This document shows, one piece after another, positions 10,264-35,320 of a DNA stretch of 64,000 nt. The position numbers and the translations under genes were made by a program. The first letter of the stretch is position 1, and the number at the start of each line of letters is the position of its first letter. The stretch lies in assembly GCA_030637025.1 (NCBI GenBank), contig DAOVVV010000007.1, forward strand, positions 8,667 through 72,666, read 5' to 3'. This stretch comes from JAGLHV01 sp023143305 [NCBI: Clostridia bacterium]. Its GTDB lineage: Bacteria > CBDUZB01 > JAGLHV01. The notes beneath the pieces were generated by a model. It was not told the DNA's origin, made no database searches, and worked only from the letters and a program-made list of their open reading frames with translations.

Positions 10264-10394
10264 AATAAAAATGTGATAGAAGGCACATAGCAAAATTGAT
10301 AGATTTGTGATATATTTAGATATAAGAAAAAATAAGTAATAAAAATATCTGAAAAAGCAAATCTGCTGTAAGGTAGAAACTCTTACAGGAATTT

Positions 10395-10484
10395 CTGTGG
10401 GATCCGATTAAAAATCGGAGCAAAGCTGAGGGATCCATCTGAGACGGATTAGCCGAGCTGCCGAAGATATAAAAGGCAGGTCGG
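10395..10484 (+). ncRNA. Cyclic-di-GMP-I (GEMM) riboswitch, copy 1
   Basis: A small stem CCGAT-TAAAA-ATCGG is followed by AGCAAAGC, a variable GGGATCC...GGATT stem and then TAGCCGAGCTGCCGA. This is the arrangement of GEMM-I aptamers, with conserved GCAAAGC and AGCCGGG/ATTGCCG elements. The 3' strand of the aptamer is re-used in a terminator immediately downstream, as in expression-platform switches that turn on when ligand stabilises the aptamer. The stem lacks the GNRA loop, so this copy is more degenerate than the one near 13.1 kb. The gene now downstream is a truncated secreted-protein gene. Confidence 0.65.
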
Positions 10485-11549: not shown

Positions 11550-13013
11550 ATGAAAAAGATTATAAAAAAACAAAAGCAGGCAAAAAAAACGAACCGGACA
11601 TTAATATTAAAGGTTTTTTTTATTACATACCTTATACTTTATATATTCCAGAGTGTATTTTGTTTTGCCGGTGAAGGTGCAGGGACAACAGCCTTCAACT
11701 TTTTAAAAATAGGTGCGGGAGCAAGGCCGGTTGGTATGGGAGAAGCATATAGTGCCTTAGCTGATGATATTAATGCTATTTACTGGAATCCGGCAGGATT
11801 AGGATGTATAACCGAACGGGAAGTTACCGCTTCTTATTTAAGTTATGTAGCAGATATTAACTCAGGATATTTTGGTTATACCTTGCCTTTAATGAAGGGC
11901 GGTTTAGGTATAAGTGTCGTTTATTTGGATTATGGGCAGATACGGGAAACTACCGATGATGACCCTGATGGAGTAAATTTGGGTTATTACCGGCCGTATG
12001 ATCTGGCAGTAATAGCTGCGTATGGGTGTAATGTTGGTGGTGGATTAAATTTGGGTATAAATATGAAAGGAATACATGAGGATATACAAGGGTATACCGC
12101 AAATGCCATTGCCTTTGATATAGGGACATTGTATGATTTACCGGTAAAAGATTTAATTTGTTCCTTCTCGATAAAAAATTTGGGATTACAAACAAAAGCT
12201 TTTATTGAAGAGAAGCATGATTTACCTTTAGTCTTTGATTTTGGTTTAGGGTATAGTATGTTAGACAATGCTTTAAAAGTAGGTTTGGACTTATATCAAC
12301 CGCAGGGCGGGGATTTTAATTTTAATATCGGGGGGGAATATTATTGGAAGAAACTTGTTGCTCTTCGAATGGGGTATAAAAATGCAGGTAAAGATTTGAA
12401 GACGGGTTCGGATAAGGATCTTTTGACCGGTTTTTGTTTTGGATTAGGGGTAAATATGGAAATGTACCGGGTAGATTATGCCTTTGTTCCCTTTAATGAA
12501 TTAGGAAATGCTCACCGCCTGTCTTTCGGATTAAAATGGGGTAAGAGTAATAATCGGAAATTAAAAGAACAGACAGTAAAGAGAAAAAAGAAAAAGGTTA
12601 ATAGAAAACAGAAGGCCGGTATAAAGAAAAAAGTTAATAAACAACAAACGGTTAAAAAACATAAAATAAAGAACAAAAAAGAGTGTAATAAAAACAAAGG
12701 CAAAAATAAAGAAGAACCGGGTATAATAAATTATAAAAAAGGACAAAAACATTCTAAACAAAAGAAATATAAAATAGCACTTAAAGAATATAGAAAAGCA
12801 TTAAAGTATGGATATAAAAAGGCTAAATTATATGCAAGTATGGGCTTTTGTTATTATAAATTGGGTAATCGGAAGGCAGCAAAAAGTTTATATAAACAAG
12901 CCTTGGATATTGAGCCGGATAACAAAAAAATTAAACAGAACTTAAAAAATATCAGCAAAAAAGGAAAAACAAAAAACAATAAAAAAATTATTGACAAATG
13001 GCGAAATCTGTGA
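11550..13013 (+). CDS. PorV/PorQ-like outer-membrane protein with C-terminal TPR domain
   Basis: A 487-residue protein. A long basic N-terminus leads into a hydrophobic export signal (about residues 20-43). It is followed by GAGTTAFNFLKIGAGARPVGMGEAYSALADD, the opening of UPF0164/PorV-type 14-strand outer-membrane barrels, then a beta-rich region to about residue 335. An extremely lysine-rich linker (about 340-400) connects to two to three TPR-like helical repeats (YKKGQKHSKQKKYKIALKEYRKALKYG ... ASMGFCYYKLGNRKAAKSLYKQALDIEPDN). PorV is the shuttle/anchor protein of type IX secretion and recognises C-terminal sorting domains, which fits the sorting-domain genes on either side, but no other T9SS gene is here. 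The fusion to a poly-Lys linker and TPR is unusual. Confidence 0.75.
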   Translation: MKKIIKKQKQAKKTNRTLILKVFFITYLILYIFQSVFCFAGEGAGTTAFNFLKIGAGARPVGMGEAYSALADDINAIYWNPAGLGCITEREVTASYLSYVADINSGYFGYTLPLMKGGLGISVVYLDYGQIRETTDDDPDGVNLGYYRPYDLAVIAAYGCNVGGGLNLGINMKGIHEDIQGYTANAIAFDIGTLYDLPVKDLICSFSIKNLGLQTKAFIEEKHDLPLVFDFGLGYSMLDNALKVGLDLYQPQGGDFNFNIGGEYYWKKLVALRMGYKNAGKDLKTGSDKDLLTGFCFGLGVNMEMYRVDYAFVPFNELGNAHRLSFGLKWGKSNNRKLKEQTVKRKKKKVNRKQKAGIKKKVNKQQTVKKHKIKNKKECNKNKGKNKEEPGIINYKKGQKHSKQKKYKIALKEYRKALKYGYKKAKLYASMGFCYYKLGNRKAAKSLYKQALDIEPDNKKIKQNLKNISKKGKTKNNKKIIDKWRNL

Positions 13014-13019
13014 TATACT
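12991..13019 (+). promoter_or_regulatory. Sigma-70-type promoter for the riboswitch RNA
   Basis: TTGACA (12991-12996), a 17-bp spacer and TATACT (13014-13019) lie across the stop codon of the PorV-like gene. It is the best promoter in the region and would start transcription about 50 bases before the c-di-GMP aptamer. Confidence 0.75.
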
Positions 13020-13074
13020 TCTAATTGAGAAGTGATAGTAAAAATTTGAAAAAGAATTATTATTTTGCTTGATA

Positions 13075-13147
13075 AGAGCAAAGTACAAGAAATTGTACGA
13101 CGCAAAACCACGGGGTTCGTTTCTGACGAGTTAGCCGGGTTGCCAAG
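13075..13147 (+). ncRNA. Cyclic-di-GMP-I (GEMM) riboswitch, copy 2
   Basis: GAGCAAA is followed by the stem GTACAA-GAAA-TTGTAC with a GAAA tetraloop (13083-13098), then GACGCAAAACCACGGG, a variable GTTCGT...GACGAG stem, and TAGCCGGGTTGCC. These are the hallmark parts of the GEMM-I aptamer: tetraloop hairpin, GACGCAAAGCC-like joining region and AGCCGGGTTGCC 3' strand. It is driven by a near-consensus promoter and runs into a terminator that uses the aptamer 3' strand, which predicts that c-di-GMP binding prevents termination (an ON switch). It precedes a small MshEN-type gene. Confidence 0.87.
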
Positions 13148-13174
13148 CCAAAAGTGGCAATCGCGGCTTTTTTT
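13133..13174 (+). terminator. Riboswitch-linked intrinsic terminator, copy 2
   Basis: AGCCG and TTGCCA (13133-13145) pair with TGGCAA and CGGCT (13155-13168) across a small internal loop, followed by a run of seven T. The left arm overlaps the conserved aptamer 3' strand, so aptamer and terminator exclude each other. Confidence 0.8.
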
Positions 13175-13229
13175 ATAAGTAATATTTGAGGAAGGGAATA
13201 TATCCTGTCGTAATAAAAGGAGGATGAAA

Positions 13230-13475
13230 ATGACAAGATTAGGAGAAATGTTAAGAAAAGAAAAAATAATAACCGGAAAACAATTAAGGGAAGTATTGGA
13301 ATCGCAAAAGAAGAATCATAAACGGTTAGGTAAAATACTGGTTTCCAGTGGATATACAGATAAGGAAGTAATTCTTGGTCTTTTGGATCAGCAACAAAAT
13401 AGTCCTTATTGGGAGATGTTTAAAGAAACCGGTTCTGTAGAAGCGTATTTGAAAATTAAAAAAATTAGATTATAA
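13230..13475 (+). CDS. Stand-alone MshEN-type c-di-GMP-binding domain protein
   Basis: An 81-residue protein made almost entirely of an MshEN (T2SSE_N) fold. It has two 24-residue motifs, RLGEMLRKEKIITGKQLREV...Q at residues 3-26 and RLGKILVSSGYTDKEVILGL...Q at 32-55, separated by exactly five residues. This is the 24-5-24 arrangement of MshEN domains that bind c-di-GMP through R-L-G-x-x-L and L-x-x-x-L-x-x-Q residues. Motif 2 is close to consensus; motif 1 has Lys where the conserved Gly is expected. Such domains normally sit at the N-terminus of PilB/MshE ATPases; here it stands alone, directly below a c-di-GMP riboswitch. I chose the ATG at 13230 because AAAGGAGG abuts the earlier ATG at 13224 too closely. 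It may act in trans on a pilus ATPase; that is inference. Confidence 0.75.
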   Translation: MTRLGEMLRKEKIITGKQLREVLESQKKNHKRLGKILVSSGYTDKEVILGLLDQQQNSPYWEMFKETGSVEAYLKIKKIRL

Positions 13476-13560: not shown

Positions 13561-13594
13561 AAAATCCGCCGTTATTTTATGGCGGATTTTTTAT
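13561..13594 (+). terminator. Rho-independent terminator
   Basis: A perfect 10-bp stem, AAAATCCGCC (13561-13570) with GGCGGATTTT (13581-13590), 10-base loop and T-run. It ends the riboswitch-MshEN transcript and isolates it from the secreted-protein gene that follows. Confidence 0.87.
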
Positions 13595-13694
13595 TTGACT
13601 TTGGTTAAAAAGTTTTGTATAGTTTTGATTAAAGCAGGAGATAATTTCGTAGATGTTATAGAATAAAAAGCAAAAAAAGAGAGAGGGGGGTAAT

Positions 13695-32088: not shown

Positions 32089-32793
32089 ATGTGTTCTACT
32101 TCGAAATCTGTAGTTAAGATTATTTTTTGTACTTCCAATCCGGATGAAAAGATGTTGCTCTGGAGTTTTTTACCGGATGGAGTGGTGTTGGATACAGTGA
32201 AAAGAGAGGAAGAATTACTTGAAAAGTTTAAGGAAACGGGCTGTAATATAATTTTATTGGATACTCAAATGGGCGTGCAGGATGGGTTTGCCGTTATTAA
32301 AAAAATAAGGGAGTATGAATCTGCTTCCGATTGGAAAGCAGTGCCTATAGTGGGAATAGTTCCCAATAAGGAAAATGCTTTATCCTCAAAATTCAGTGAT
32401 CATATATTTCGTCCTTTTCAGCAGCAGGAGGTATTAAAAGTTATTAACAAATATGTTTCTTTGCCTCCTTTATCGGCAATAGTTATTACTCTTGACCTGG
32501 AAATTAAAGATTTTGTTCCTGAATTTCTGGAAAACAGAAAAAAAGACAGTCTCTCGATTGGTGTGAATTTAAAAGAAAATAATTTTGTAAAAATTAAGGA
32601 ATTAGGGCATAAGATGGTTGGTTCGGGAAAACTTTATGGCTTTGAACGAATTAGTAAAATAGGATATTTATTAGAAAAAGCAGCTAAAGAAGAACGAATA
32701 GAACCGATAAAAAAATTATCTCAGGAATTAATAATTTATCTTAATCAAGTGAAAAGCAGGTGGTTATATGCAGTCAAAGATTGTGGTCATTGA
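32089..32793 (+). CDS. Degenerate receiver plus histidine phosphotransfer (Hpt) protein
   Basis: A 234-residue protein. The first half is receiver-like (NIILLDTQMGVQDGFAVIKKIR keeps the phospho-acceptor Asp), but the N-terminal acidic pair is missing (IIFCTSNPDEK) and the late Lys is Arg (FRPFQ). The second half (about 130-230) is an Hpt helix bundle with LGHKMVGSGKLYGFERIS, the phosphorylatable His in H-K-M-x-G-S-G. It would pass phosphate between receivers. Its end overlaps the next gene, the REC-PilB-REC ATPase, by 26 bases, which ties it to that ATPase. Confidence 0.78.
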   Translation: MCSTSKSVVKIIFCTSNPDEKMLLWSFLPDGVVLDTVKREEELLEKFKETGCNIILLDTQMGVQDGFAVIKKIREYESASDWKAVPIVGIVPNKENALSSKFSDHIFRPFQQQEVLKVINKYVSLPPLSAIVITLDLEIKDFVPEFLENRKKDSLSIGVNLKENNFVKIKELGHKMVGSGKLYGFERISKIGYLLEKAAKEERIEPIKKLSQELIIYLNQVKSRWLYAVKDCGH

Positions 32794-35320
32794 TGATGAC
32801 CAGGAAATTTTAAAGATATTTAAACGGTATCTGGAGAATGAAAATTATATAGTTTATACCGTTGATAATAGTTTTAAAGCACTGGAAACGGTAGAAAAGG
32901 TAAAACCAGGTTTGATTTTACTGGATGTTCAGATGCCGGAAATGAATGGATATGAAGTTTGTTCAAAAATACGAAATAACGAAAGTTTGTCCGGGGTTCC
33001 TGTAATATTTATAAGTGCTCTGGATGAACAACAGGATAAGACAAAAGCATTTTCTCATGGTGCTGTTGATTATATAGTAAAGCCGCCCAGCAAAAAAGAA
33101 ATAGTAGATAAAATTAAAAAGCATTTAAAAGGGATTATCGATGAGCAGGGGAAAGAAGAAGATGCTCATATAAAAAAAATAAGTTTCCCCGGGAAATTTA
33201 AAGATTTTAAAAAATTTTTAGAAAATAAATTAAGTTTAAATGCAGAAAAAAAAGAAATATTATTAGCAACAAAAGCGAACGCAATAAATTCACTGGGTGG
33301 AGCTTTAAGTCTTTCCAGTGCACAATTAGCACAGTATATTGCCGAATTTTTAAAATTGAAATATATTCCTTATCTGGATCCGGAACTTTTACAGCTGGAT
33401 ATCCTTCCCAATTCTTTTTGCCGAAAGTATCATGTATTAACTATAAATGATGAAAATCAAAACAAAGAAGCAGAAGATAAAGTTTTTGCTTTGAGCAATC
33501 CTTTTGATTGGGAACTGATGGAATTTTTAAGTAAGATGAACGGGAATAACCGGGTGGTGATTACTGAATCGGAAAACATTGATTCCTTTTTTAAAGAAAA
33601 AGGAGAAGACAAAACGACTATTGATATTATTTCCCAGGGTGCCTCTCAGCAGGAAATAGAAAATCGTCCGGTTAAATATATAAGCGACCATATTATTTAT
33701 AAAGCAATAATTCAAAGAGCAAGTGATATACATATAGAACCTAAAGAATCGGAAACAAGTATTCGCTTTCGTGTCGATGGGGATATGCAGCCTGCTTTTT
33801 TTCTGAAAGATAAGACCGCTTTACGCTTGATTGCCCGATTTAAAGTACTTGCTGACTTAGATATTGCCGAAAGGCGAAAACCGCAAGATGGTTCTTTTGC
33901 TATAGCCATGGGCAATAGAAAGTTTAAATTAAGAGTGGCTACTACCAATACAGCTTTCGGAGAGAGTGTTGTTTTACGTTTGTTAGAGCCTAAAGGAAAA
34001 CCAAAATCATTGGAATTGTTGGGAATGACTGATGAACAAGAGAAGACTATTCGCGAATTTTCCCGGCAGACCAGCGGTCTGATTTTGCTGGTTGGGCCCA
34101 CGGGTTCGGGGAAAACTACTACTATTTATAGTCTTCTAAGCCAGATAGACTGCAAAACCAGGAGTTTAATTTCAGTAGAGGACCCTATTGAATATACTAT
34201 CCCGGATGCTAATCAACAACAGGTAAATGAAAAAATCGGAGTTACCTTTCATATGCTTTTAAGATCGGCAATGCGTCAGGATCCGGATATACTCTTTATC
34301 GGTGAAATGAGAGACCGGTTTTCTGCTTCGGTAGCAACAGAAGCAGCCAGTACCGGCCATTTAGCTATCAGTACTATGCATTCAGCCAATGCTACCAGTG
34401 CAATTTTTCGTATGGAAACATTGGGTGTAGTCCGTTCGGTTATGGCTGATTCAATTTTGGGGATAGTATCACAGAAACTGCTTAAGGTTCTTTGTCCTTA
34501 TTGCCGGGAAGAGTTACCTATTACCAAGGAAGAAATCCGCTTGTTATCAAAATATACAACTAATTTTCCCGGTAGTGTTGCTCATCCGGGAGGATGTCCA
34601 CAGTGTAATTATACCGGTTATTATGGAAGGGAAGCAGTTTATGAAATTTTAAAATTTGATTCGGAAATATCGAAAATGGTGCGTGATAATATTCCGGTGG
34701 GAGAGATAAGGCGGTTTATTAAACAGCAAGGCGATTATTTAATCGGTGACCATGCTTTGGAAAAAGTAAAGAATTTTAAATTTTCAGTAAAACAAATTTG
34801 TGGTACGGTGTTAATAGAGGAAGCAGAGCTTGTTTCACCTGCTAAAAAAACAACCCGGATTATTCAGGACAGAAAATTAGAGGGTGAACAAATAGAAAGT
34901 AAAATGGTGCAAGATGAAAAATTACCGGATAATAAACATATATTACTGGTGGAAGACGATAGGGATATTCGCCGGGTGGTGGCCCGGTTATTGGAAAAAG
35001 ATGGGTATTCGGTTACTGTTGCCGAGGACGGTATAGCTGCTCTGCTGCATATGGGTAAATCAACTTTTGAATTGATTCTTTCCGATGTAGAGATGCCTAA
35101 TTTAGACGGATTTAAATTATTGGAGATGAAAAACCAAAAGGGAATTAAAACCCCTGTAATATTTTTAACTTCAAGGGCGAATGTACAGGATGAAGCACTG
35201 GGATTTAAAATGGGTGCTGTTGATTATATTAGAAAGCCGTTTAATAAAGAGACTTTATTGTTAAGAATTAATAGTATTTTAAAGATATTGAAAAACGGGG
35301 GGAATGTAAAAAATGGATAA
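32768..35320 (+). CDS. PilB/GspE-type ATPase with receiver domains at both ends
   Basis: An 850-residue protein. REC1 (1-125; VVIDDDQE, ILLDVQMPEMNGYEV, VKPPS) is complete. A T2SSE_N-like segment follows (SSAQLAQYIAEFLKLKYIPYLDPELLQLDILP), but without the RLG-x-x-L c-di-GMP motifs. The secretion ATPase core has SDIHIEPKE, Walker A GPTGSGKTT near 443, Walker B region DILFIGEMRD near 507, TGHLAISTMHSANA, and a tetracysteine metal site CPYC (576) with CPQC (610). REC2 (about 723-845; LLVEDDRD, LILSDVEMPNLDG, RKPFN) is also complete. It would power pilus or pseudopilus assembly under direct phosphorelay control. Start codon lies inside the Hpt gene; the next gene overlaps by 8 bases. Confidence 0.92.
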   Translation: MQSKIVVIDDDQEILKIFKRYLENENYIVYTVDNSFKALETVEKVKPGLILLDVQMPEMNGYEVCSKIRNNESLSGVPVIFISALDEQQDKTKAFSHGAVDYIVKPPSKKEIVDKIKKHLKGIIDEQGKEEDAHIKKISFPGKFKDFKKFLENKLSLNAEKKEILLATKANAINSLGGALSLSSAQLAQYIAEFLKLKYIPYLDPELLQLDILPNSFCRKYHVLTINDENQNKEAEDKVFALSNPFDWELMEFLSKMNGNNRVVITESENIDSFFKEKGEDKTTIDIISQGASQQEIENRPVKYISDHIIYKAIIQRASDIHIEPKESETSIRFRVDGDMQPAFFLKDKTALRLIARFKVLADLDIAERRKPQDGSFAIAMGNRKFKLRVATTNTAFGESVVLRLLEPKGKPKSLELLGMTDEQEKTIREFSRQTSGLILLVGPTGSGKTTTIYSLLSQIDCKTRSLISVEDPIEYTIPDANQQQVNEKIGVTFHMLLRSAMRQDPDILFIGEMRDRFSASVATEAASTGHLAISTMHSANATSAIFRMETLGVVRSVMADSILGIVSQKLLKVLCPYCREELPITKEEIRLLSKYTTNFPGSVAHPGGCPQCNYTGYYGREAVYEILKFDSEISKMVRDNIPVGEIRRFIKQQGDYLIGDHALEKVKNFKFSVKQICGTVLIEEAELVSPAKKTTRIIQDRKLEGEQIESKMVQDEKLPDNKHILLVEDDRDIRRVVARLLEKDGYSVTVAEDGIAALLHMGKSTFELILSDVEMPNLDGFKLLEMKNQKGIKTPVIFLTSRANVQDEALGFKMGAVDYIRKPFNKETLLLRINSILKILKNGGNVKNG

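What the first reader, a model, noticed from the sequence alone, without database searches (positions are those of the whole stretch)
12991..13475. A c-di-GMP riboswitch controls a free-standing c-di-GMP-binding domain
A near-consensus promoter, a well-formed GEMM-I aptamer with GAAA tetraloop, and a mutually exclusive terminator precede an 81-residue gene that is just an MshEN fold with the exact 24-5-24 motif spacing. The same ligand would thus control both synthesis and activity of this small protein. The window's PilB-type ATPase at 32.8 kb has lost the RLG-x-x-L motifs from its own N-terminal domain and carries receivers instead. The small protein might therefore supply c-di-GMP sensing in trans, or act as a ligand buffer.
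Basis: partly seen in the sequence, partly recalled or inferred. Interest (0 to 1): 0.85.

Follow-up and report, generated by a model that had tools for sequence, protein, structure and literature searches.

The report
Riboswitch-controlled mini c-di-GMP receptor
An uncultured bacterium has a tiny gene, apparently switched on by an RNA sensor of a cyclic-dinucleotide signal, whose product looks like a free-standing receptor for such a signal with a widespread but unexplained tail, so both its making and its action may be under messenger control.

Summary
The unit is real and conserved: a promoter, a GEMM-I aptamer (Rfam RF03168, 70.1 bits, E 3.7e-13), a terminator sharing the aptamer's 3' strand (predicted ON switch), and an 81-aa gene with its own terminator. 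Two sister species keep the pair (aptamer 78/81 and 76/81 identical; dN/dS about 0.1). Residues 3-55 match NCBIfam's MshE-type c-di-GMP-binding domain end to end (55.5 bits, cut-off 38).

Two corrections. First, the aptamer and both orthologous aptamers have A, not G, at ligand-selective position 20, as in published cGAMP-type riboswitches; 38 of 42 above-cut-off GEMM-I hits in three congeneric genomes have G. No Hypr-type GGDEF was seen (22 of 24 readable), so 'the same ligand controls both' is unproven. Second, residues 57-81 are a YqzL-like tail. After weak rows were dropped by eye, the same tail ends PilZ proteins and MshEN-ATPases in two other lineages; all six fusions carry a c-di-GMP-type receptor domain. 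Elsewhere it forms tiny genes beside pheS or era/recO.

Best reading: a messenger-induced adaptor receptor whose tail docks on a partner in surface-structure assembly. Anatomy is strong, ligand identity open, function inferred.

The parts
12991..13019 (+). sigma-70-type promoter with extended -10 (TTGACA-17-TATACT)
   Evidence: 11 of 12 consensus matches, TG before -10; same element in G003, aligned in G002 and G003
13068..13148 (+). GEMM-I (c-di-GMP-I type) riboswitch aptamer; base 13077 = A at Vc2 position 20, 13104 = A47, 13143 = C92
   Evidence: RF03168 70.1 bits, E 3.7e-13; orthologues 70.2 and 70.6 bits; position 20 read; Vc2 numbering partly recalled
13133..13174 (+). intrinsic terminator whose 5' arm is the aptamer's 3' strand (ON-type expression platform, predicted)
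   Evidence: MFE fold -33.9 kcal/mol, z -2.3; equivalent stem predicted in G002 and G003
13219..13223 (+). Shine-Dalgarno GGAGG
   Evidence: read in the sequence; aligned in the orthologues
13230..13475 (+). 81-aa MshEN_N plus YqzL-tail protein
   Evidence: open frame (listed from the earlier ATG 13224); orthologues 84 and 83% identical; dN/dS 0.085-0.141
13236..13307 (+). MshEN motif I, residues 3-26
   Evidence: NF053729 1-53 of 53 over residues 3-55; AF2 pLDDT 91-95 over the first 40 residues
13323..13394 (+). MshEN motif II, residues 32-55
13398..13472 (+). YqzL-like C-terminal tail, residues 57-81, predicted two-helix hairpin
   Evidence: PF14006 E 0.0069, below its cut-off; profile of six standalone YqzL-like ORFs scores 18.4 bits, best of 20,000 shuffled tails 8.6; AF2 helices 59-67 and 70-76, pLDDT 71-72 over residues 61-80
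13561..13590 (+). intrinsic terminator after the gene, so a monocistronic unit
   Evidence: 12-pair stem plus T-run; same kind of element in G003

Best explanation
A self-contained regulatory cassette. RNA polymerase starts at the promoter. If a cyclic dinucleotide binds the GEMM-I aptamer, the aptamer holds the strand that would otherwise form the terminator and the 81-aa gene is transcribed (ON switch, inferred from folding). The protein is an isolated MshEN_N c-di-GMP receptor domain with a YqzL-like helical tail. It most likely binds c-di-GMP through its two RLG...Q motifs, and the tail docks the loaded receptor on a partner. The tail recurs on PilZ proteins and on an MshEN-bearing pilus/secretion-type ATPase elsewhere, and this genus's GEMM-I regulon holds many pilin-like and surface-protein genes, so pilus or surface-protein assembly is the likeliest target. 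Shown: anatomy, conservation, domain match, tail homology. Inferred: ligand binding by RNA and protein, switch direction, partner. The riboswitch ligand is c-di-GMP or cGAMP; the A20 base leans to cGAMP, the apparent lack of a Hypr cyclase leans to c-di-GMP.
For: Riboswitch; terminator overlap; conserved pair in two sister species: (the two named contigs have the lengths of the same two contigs and are not further cases); purifying selection on domain and tail. Receptor domain: NF053729 above cut-off, PDB profile hits to PilB and MshE, AF2 model closest to MshE/PilF GSPII domains, best 5htl_B (MshE with c-di-GMP), prob 1.00, query TM 0.68, rmsd 0.8. Isolated V. cholerae MshEN_N 1-62 binds c-di-GMP with KD 0.35 uM (PMC5013675, section 12). 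All six ligand-contact residues kept in motif I; in motif II five kept and I48 for Leu. Tail: same module on PilZ proteins (G211, G341) and MshEN-T2SSE ATPases (G241, G369); with the two orthologues, 6 of 6 fused proteins kept after weak rows were dropped. Regulon: 12, 18 and 12 GEMM-I hits above cut-off in G001, G002, G003, many before pilin-like, TadG-like and secreted surface proteins (names by eye).
Against: Motif I lacks the consensus Gly and one hydrophobic residue, so the strict and the relaxed 24-residue patterns of PMC5013675 are not fully met; binding may be weak. Foldseek E-values are poor for so short a chain (best 0.026, none at or below 0.001). No partner was identified, and I know no function for the tail anywhere; 9 of the 15 genomes with a clear tail carry it as a tiny free ORF beside pheS or era/recO, not obviously a c-di-GMP context. 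The A20 base argues against a simple c-di-GMP loop. ON direction rests on folding only.
Confidence: 0.5

Rival explanations
1. Two-signal coincidence device: the A20 riboswitch senses 3',3'-cGAMP and induces a protein that senses c-di-GMP, so the output needs both messengers.
For: A20 in all three species while 38 of 42 above-cut-off congeneric aptamers have G20; A20G switches a cGAMP riboswitch to c-di-GMP (PMC6456294, passages); V. cholerae MshEN prefers c-di-GMP to cGAMP about 660-fold (PMC5013675). Each of G001, G002 and G003 carries a GGDEF protein with Asn instead of Asp at the selectivity position and a GGDEF (not GGEEF) motif (L122, L126, L124), a possible unusual cyclase (inference).
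Against: No GGDEF with Ser/Thr at the Hypr position among the 22 of 24 hits that I could read by eye; L133 starts beyond that position and L134 gave no readable segment. The other two above-cut-off A20 aptamers (G001:C125, G001:C323:7260) stand before the same kinds of gene as G20 aptamers in the sister species, so the base can drift. PMC9262584 calls the G20 position a selectivity factor rather than a hard filter, and a title in its reference list says cGAMP riboswitches can bind c-di-GMP when adenine is protonated. CD-NTase cGAMP synthases were not searched.
Confidence: 0.2
2. One reading: c-di-GMP controls both synthesis and activity, and the protein supplies c-di-GMP sensing in trans to the REC-T2SSE-REC ATPase at 32.8 kb.
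For: The ATPase lacks RLG motifs, has no NF053729 hit in residues 119-300, and has a receiver at each end. Binding of an adaptor to a PilB N-terminal domain is known for PilZ in Xanthomonas citri (7lkm, 7lkn and 7lko, which are weak fold hits here).
Against: 19 kb apart, no shared operon; the genus has PilB-type ATPases with their own NF053729 match above cut-off (G001:C24, G002:C83, G002:C70, G003:C57). A20 weakens the same-ligand claim. Presence of the ATPase in the sister species was not tested.
Confidence: 0.13
3. A c-di-GMP sink or buffer: an abundant small receptor induced when the messenger is high, damping the signal.
For: A near-consensus promoter, an ON switch and an isolated binding domain would fit negative feedback.
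Against: A buffer needs no conserved tail, yet the tail has dN 0.068 (window against each sister) against 0.103 and 0.112 for the domain, and 0 between G002 and G003, and recurs on other receptors.
Confidence: 0.08
4. An ATPase fragment or decaying gene.
For: Most of the domain's homologues in other genomes are the N-termini of PilB-type ATPases of about 540-600 aa.
Against: dN/dS 0.085-0.141, orthologues with the same start, stop, promoter and riboswitch, and a terminator after the gene; only about 220 nt separate the gene from the next one.
Confidence: 0.01

Closest known systems
cGAMP-type GEMM-Ib riboswitches of Geobacter (pilM, pgcA)
   Same: GEMM-I fold, A at position 20, C at 92, terminator that sequesters the ligand-pairing C; pilM is an ON switch (PMC9262584, passages)
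   Different: distant host with no recognised Hypr GGDEF; controls a lone receptor domain rather than cytochrome or pilus genes
c-di-GMP-I riboswitches (RF01051, RF03168)
   Same: orthologue scores 63.0 and 60.8 against RF01051 (gathering 35); window 70.1 against RF03168
   Different: neither G20 (RF01051 consensus) nor U20/U92 (the name-giving bases of RF03168, inferred from its consensus)
MshEN_N domain of MshE and PilB (NF053729; PDB 5htl, 5tsg)
   Same: two 24-residue motifs, four-helix bundle, ligand-contact residues
   Different: no MshEN_C subdomain and no ATPase; own gene; extra tail; spacer 5 or 7 among orthologues
YqzL-like proteins (PF14006)
   Same: W-x2-F-x2-[TSC]-G-x3-[AI]-Y-L signature
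   Different: here the C-terminal module of a receptor domain, not a tiny free protein

Membership tests
c-di-GMP-I (GEMM-I) riboswitch fold | covariance-model score above the gathering threshold | tested here: met
   RF03168 70.1 against 65.9 in the window; orthologues above RF01051's 35
c-di-GMP-I (GEMM-I) riboswitch fold | binds c-di-GMP | not testable with these tools
   needs in-line probing; G20, the c-di-GMP-associated base, is absent (for orthologues, for the window)
c-di-GMP-I-UAU (RF03168) by name-giving bases | U at 20 and U at 92 | tested here: not met
   window has A (13077) and C (13143) (alignment); meaning of the name inferred from the consensus
cGAMP (GEMM-Ib) riboswitch | A at position 20 in a GEMM-I aptamer | tested here: met
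   criterion from PMC6456294 (passages)
cGAMP (GEMM-Ib) riboswitch | Hypr GGDEF (Ser/Thr at the selectivity position) in the organism | tested here: not met
   0 of the 22 readable among 24 GGDEF hits in G001-G003; the window's own assembly is not held and these genomes are 94, 97 and 86% complete
MshEN_N c-di-GMP receptor | NF053729 above curated cut-off over the full 53 positions | tested here: met
   55.5 bits against 38; orthologues 51.9 and 49.8
MshEN_N c-di-GMP receptor | strict RLGxx(LVI)(LVI)xxG(LVI)(LVI)xxxxLxxxLxxQ twice with a 5-residue linker | tested here: not met
   motif I deviates at positions 7 and 10, motif II at 11, 12 and 17; linker 5 in the window, 7 in orthologues
MshEN_N c-di-GMP receptor | binds c-di-GMP | not testable with these tools
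   contact residues kept, not assayed
YqzL-like (PF14006) | score above the Pfam gathering cut-off | tested here: not met
   17.1 bits against 27 for the window protein; the G211 PilZ-tail protein reaches 27.4
YqzL-like (PF14006) | homology of the tail to standalone YqzL-like ORFs | tested here: met
   18.4 bits with a profile of six standalone ORFs only; best of 20,000 shuffled tails 8.6
PilB/MshE ATPase | T2SSE ATPase domain | tested here: not met
   81 aa only; no Pfam T2SSE hit at E up to 1

The most novel reading that the evidence does not exclude
A two-messenger AND gate: a cGAMP-type RNA switch makes a c-di-GMP-type protein receptor, whose YqzL-like tail is a previously unrecognised docking module shared by several cyclic-dinucleotide receptor classes (MshEN_N, PilZ, MshEN-ATPase) in unrelated bacteria.
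Probability: 0.15. Interest if true: 0.78.

Novelty: new variant of a known kind. Interest (0 to 1): 0.55.

Why it matters
MshEN domains are described mainly as parts of larger effectors. A conserved, riboswitch-controlled, single-domain MshEN receptor would be a minimal adaptor with control at both the RNA and the protein level. The A20 base makes it testable whether one cassette reads two different messengers. The YqzL-like tail gives a lead on a little-studied family (one paper in the searched library contains the name) and a handle for fishing out a common partner of PilZ- and MshEN-type receptors.

Tried and rejected
ATPase fragment: rejected on conservation and dN/dS. Mobile or viral origin: the viral-contig scan matched 45 stretches by pattern, none encoding a relative. 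Loss of the gene in the nearest genome G001: explained as an assembly gap; the flanks match at 100% and contigs end at about window 11918 and restart at about 14502. Pfam alone would have dismissed the MshEN call; NCBIfam and structure comparison reversed that. DUF4388 as the best Pfam family (E 0.0023-0.0033, below cut-off) was set aside because only residues 2-27 match. A wider tail search centred on G211 mostly re-sampled the same genomes and added no architecture; two further genomes of G211's genus (G387, G388) had no tail at E up to 5e-4. The PorV-like neighbour as an established functional link: not claimed, because such matches are abundant (17-29 per genome). The best Rfam label (UAU or GGC) as a guide to ligand: rejected, because the name-giving bases differ.
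Full report
WHAT IS THERE. At 12991-13019 lies TTGACA-17-TATACT with a TG extension. At 13068-13148 a GEMM-I aptamer scores 70.1 bits with Rfam RF03168 (gathering 65.9; E 3.7e-13 over the window). The minimum-energy fold of 13066-13175 pairs 13133-13145 with 13155-13168 before a U-tract (3 of 200 shuffles fold as well). This terminator uses the 3' strand of the aptamer, including the C at 13143 that corresponds to the ligand-pairing C92/C75, as described for the Geobacter pilM ON switch (PMC9262584, passages). An SD (13219-13223) and an 81-aa frame from ATG 13230 follow, and then a 12-pair terminator at 13561-13590. The next gene has its own promoter-like site at 13595.

CONSERVATION. The window's own assembly is not held. 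The nearest genome, G001, matches at 100% in the flanks but its contigs break across the locus. G002 and G003 (same genus) carry the orthologue at 83-84% identity as a free-standing frame, with aptamers at 70.6 and 70.2 bits, the promoter and, in G003, a terminator after the gene. Aptamers are identical at 78 of 81 (G003) and 76 of 81 (G002) positions; the 2.4 kb that contain them are 74-75% identical. dN/dS is 0.085-0.141 by two methods over the three pairs. The genome-contig scan, which looks only for two short peptides, gave 2 loci from 68 candidate stretches: MAG contigs JAGLYT010000026.1 and JAUVLC010000099.1, whose lengths equal those of G003:C179 and G002:C56, so they are the same two cases with names. 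Apart from G001-G003, the genomes share only the domain with this genus. The viral scan found no relative.

THE DOMAIN. Residues 3-55 match NF053729 (MshE-related c-di-GMP-binding domain) over 1-53 of 53 with 55.5 bits, cut-off 38, in the window protein; the orthologues score 51.9 and 49.8. A profile of the three hits PilB and MshE chains in the PDB. An AlphaFold2 model from a 31-row alignment (3 orthologues, 28 MshEN stretches of ATPases and other proteins) has mean pLDDT 85.5, 90-95 over the first 50 residues. Foldseek's first 12 hits are MshE/PilF GSPII structures; the best is 5htl_B (MshE with c-di-GMP; prob 1.00, query TM 0.68, rmsd 0.8), with E only 0.026 and no hit at E of 0.001 or less. 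Wang et al. 2016 (PMC5013675; abstract, passages, sections 9 and 12 read) define two 24-residue motifs with a 5-residue linker and report KD 0.35 uM for isolated MshEN_N 1-62. In the window protein all six contact residues of motif I are kept (R3, L4, G5, L19, L23, Q26), and in motif II R32, L33, G34, L52 and Q55 with I48 for Leu. Against: motif I has R9 and K12 where a hydrophobic residue and Gly are expected, motif II has Y42-T43, and the linker is 7 in both orthologues. Pfam finds no MshEN in the small ORF.

THE TAIL. Residues 57-81 (NSPYWEMFKETGSVEAYLKIKKIRL) are almost invariant in the three species. Pfam YqzL gives E 0.0069, below its cut-off. I searched the tail alone (A3, three orthologues, no MshEN residues) in 386 genomes at E up to 0.05: 19 genomes, 20 rows. 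After translating most of them I kept ten rows by eye for the W-F-G-YL signature and dropped ten: G251 (E 0.0028, a protein that reads as a rhodanese fusion, no W), G200, G330 twice, G189, G192, G349, G358, G075 and G239. Two of these (G192, G239) were not translated. The eight kept rows that are not orthologues, the three orthologues and two ORFs from a PF14006 search made a 13-row profile, A4, which gave 32 of 386 genomes at E up to 0.02. In 15 of them E is below 1e-5. Twelve of these 15 supplied rows to A4, so only G165, G304 and G329 are new. The other 17 genomes have short partial matches (E 0.002 or more) and were dropped. Of the 15, six carry fused proteins: the two orthologues; PilZ proteins in G211 and G341 (Pfam PilZ 30.3 against 22.5 and YqzL 27.4 against 27 for the G211 protein; the G341 protein is a near copy, not scanned); and MshEN-T2SSE ATPases in G241 and G369 (NF053729 57.8 bits for the G241 protein; the G369 protein matched A1 with E 5e-11). 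All six, in three lineages, carry a c-di-GMP-type receptor domain; this count rests on the by-eye choice above. Nine carry tiny free ORFs: seven lie upstream of pheS and two between era and recO (PheS in L188, Era and RecO read by eye). A second sample centred on G211 (386 genomes, largely the same) added none. A profile of six standalone tails only scores the window protein at 18.4 bits; of 20,000 copies with shuffled tails the best scored 8.6. In G241 and G369 the ATPase gene is followed at once by a G20 c-di-GMP-I riboswitch and a gene that reads as a secreted protein.

THE LIGAND. Position 20 (base before the P1a GC) is A in the window and in both orthologues. In G001-G003 there are 42 RF01051 hits above cut-off (in G002 150 of 173 first-look candidates were scored); 38 have G and 4 have A: the two orthologues plus G001:C125 and G001:C323:7260. 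The last two stand before the same kinds of gene as G20 aptamers in the sister species, so the base does change within the genus. Three hits below cut-off (one G, two A) were kept out of the count. Published work ties A20 to cGAMP and G20 to c-di-GMP (PMC6456294, passages and section 12), and V. cholerae MshEN prefers c-di-GMP (0.5 against 330 uM cGAMP). Of 24 GGDEF hits in the three genomes, none of the 22 readable by eye at the Hypr position has Ser/Thr; five have Asn (L115, L122, L124, L126, L130). So either cGAMP is made by an enzyme not recognised here, or this A20 aptamer works with c-di-GMP.

THE REGULON AND NEIGHBOURS. First ORFs after the congeneric riboswitches include pilin-like and TadG-like N-termini and secreted surface proteins (by eye). 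Upstream of the cassette is a PorV-like/UPF0164 protein with a TPR, downstream a protein with weak FlgD_ig/Por_Secre_tail matches. In G341 and G211 the PilZ-tail gene also sits between a PorV-like gene and a protein that ends like an FlgD_ig domain by eye, but PorV-like matches number 17-29 per genome, so this is only suggestive. The 32.8 kb ATPase has REC-T2SSE-REC with a residual PF05157 match at 203-275 and no NF053729 match in its residues 119-300; its presence in sister species was not tested.

CONCLUSION. A conserved cassette: GEMM-I ON-type riboswitch (A20 variant) plus an 81-aa MshEN_N receptor with a YqzL-like tail. Most likely it is a messenger-induced adaptor for surface-structure assembly. 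Whether RNA and protein read the same messenger is open. Literature searches 'MshEN'+'c-di-GMP' (56 papers, 25 listed), 'MshEN'+'riboswitch' (34 papers, 10 listed), 'YqzL' (1 paper) and a receptor/riboswitch query (56 papers, 12 listed) listed no title about a riboswitch-controlled free-standing MshEN domain; the unlisted papers were not seen. Of PMC6200980 and PMC12943098 only passages were seen, likewise of PMC9943018 and PMC7266159.

CHANGES AFTER CHECKING. The dropped rows of the tail searches, the overlap between profile and hits, the identity of the two named contigs with G002 and G003, and the capped first look in G002 were added. The probability of the novel case was lowered from 0.20 to 0.15, because the docking-module half rests on rows chosen by eye.

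Noticed in passing
window 10346-10465: A second, weaker GEMM-I aptamer (27.1 bits, gathering 35) with about 50 extra bases in its first hairpin and A at position 20; the ORF after it shows no signal peptide by eye and looks like the C-terminal end of a surface protein, as if the unit were decayed.
   Followed up: partly
L168, L188, L189, L190, L191, L192, L193 (pheS); L167, L169 (era/recO): YqzL-like tiny ORFs lie upstream of pheS in 7 of 9 genomes (four families, f16, f65, f127, f245) and between era and recO in the other 2; no function known to me.
   Followed up: partly
L122, L124, L126: One GGDEF protein in each of G001, G003 and G002 has Asn instead of Asp at the base-selecting position (GHxxGN) with an otherwise intact GGDEF motif; a candidate for altered nucleotide specificity.
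   Followed up: no
G001, G002, G003: 12, 18 and 12 GEMM-I riboswitches above cut-off per genome, many before pilin-like and surface-protein genes; two hits (G001:C31:4467, G003:C336:3944) are 142 nt long and may hold a partly duplicated aptamer end.
   Followed up: partly
L184 615-2226, L185 206-1929: MshEN-T2SSE ATPase with a YqzL-like tail directly followed by a c-di-GMP-I riboswitch and a gene that reads as a secreted protein, in two genomes of another family.
   Followed up: partly
window 32089-35320: Receiver protein with a weak Hpt match overlapping a REC-T2SSE-REC ATPase: possible phosphorelay input into a pilus/secretion-type ATPase that lacks the c-di-GMP motif.
   Followed up: partly
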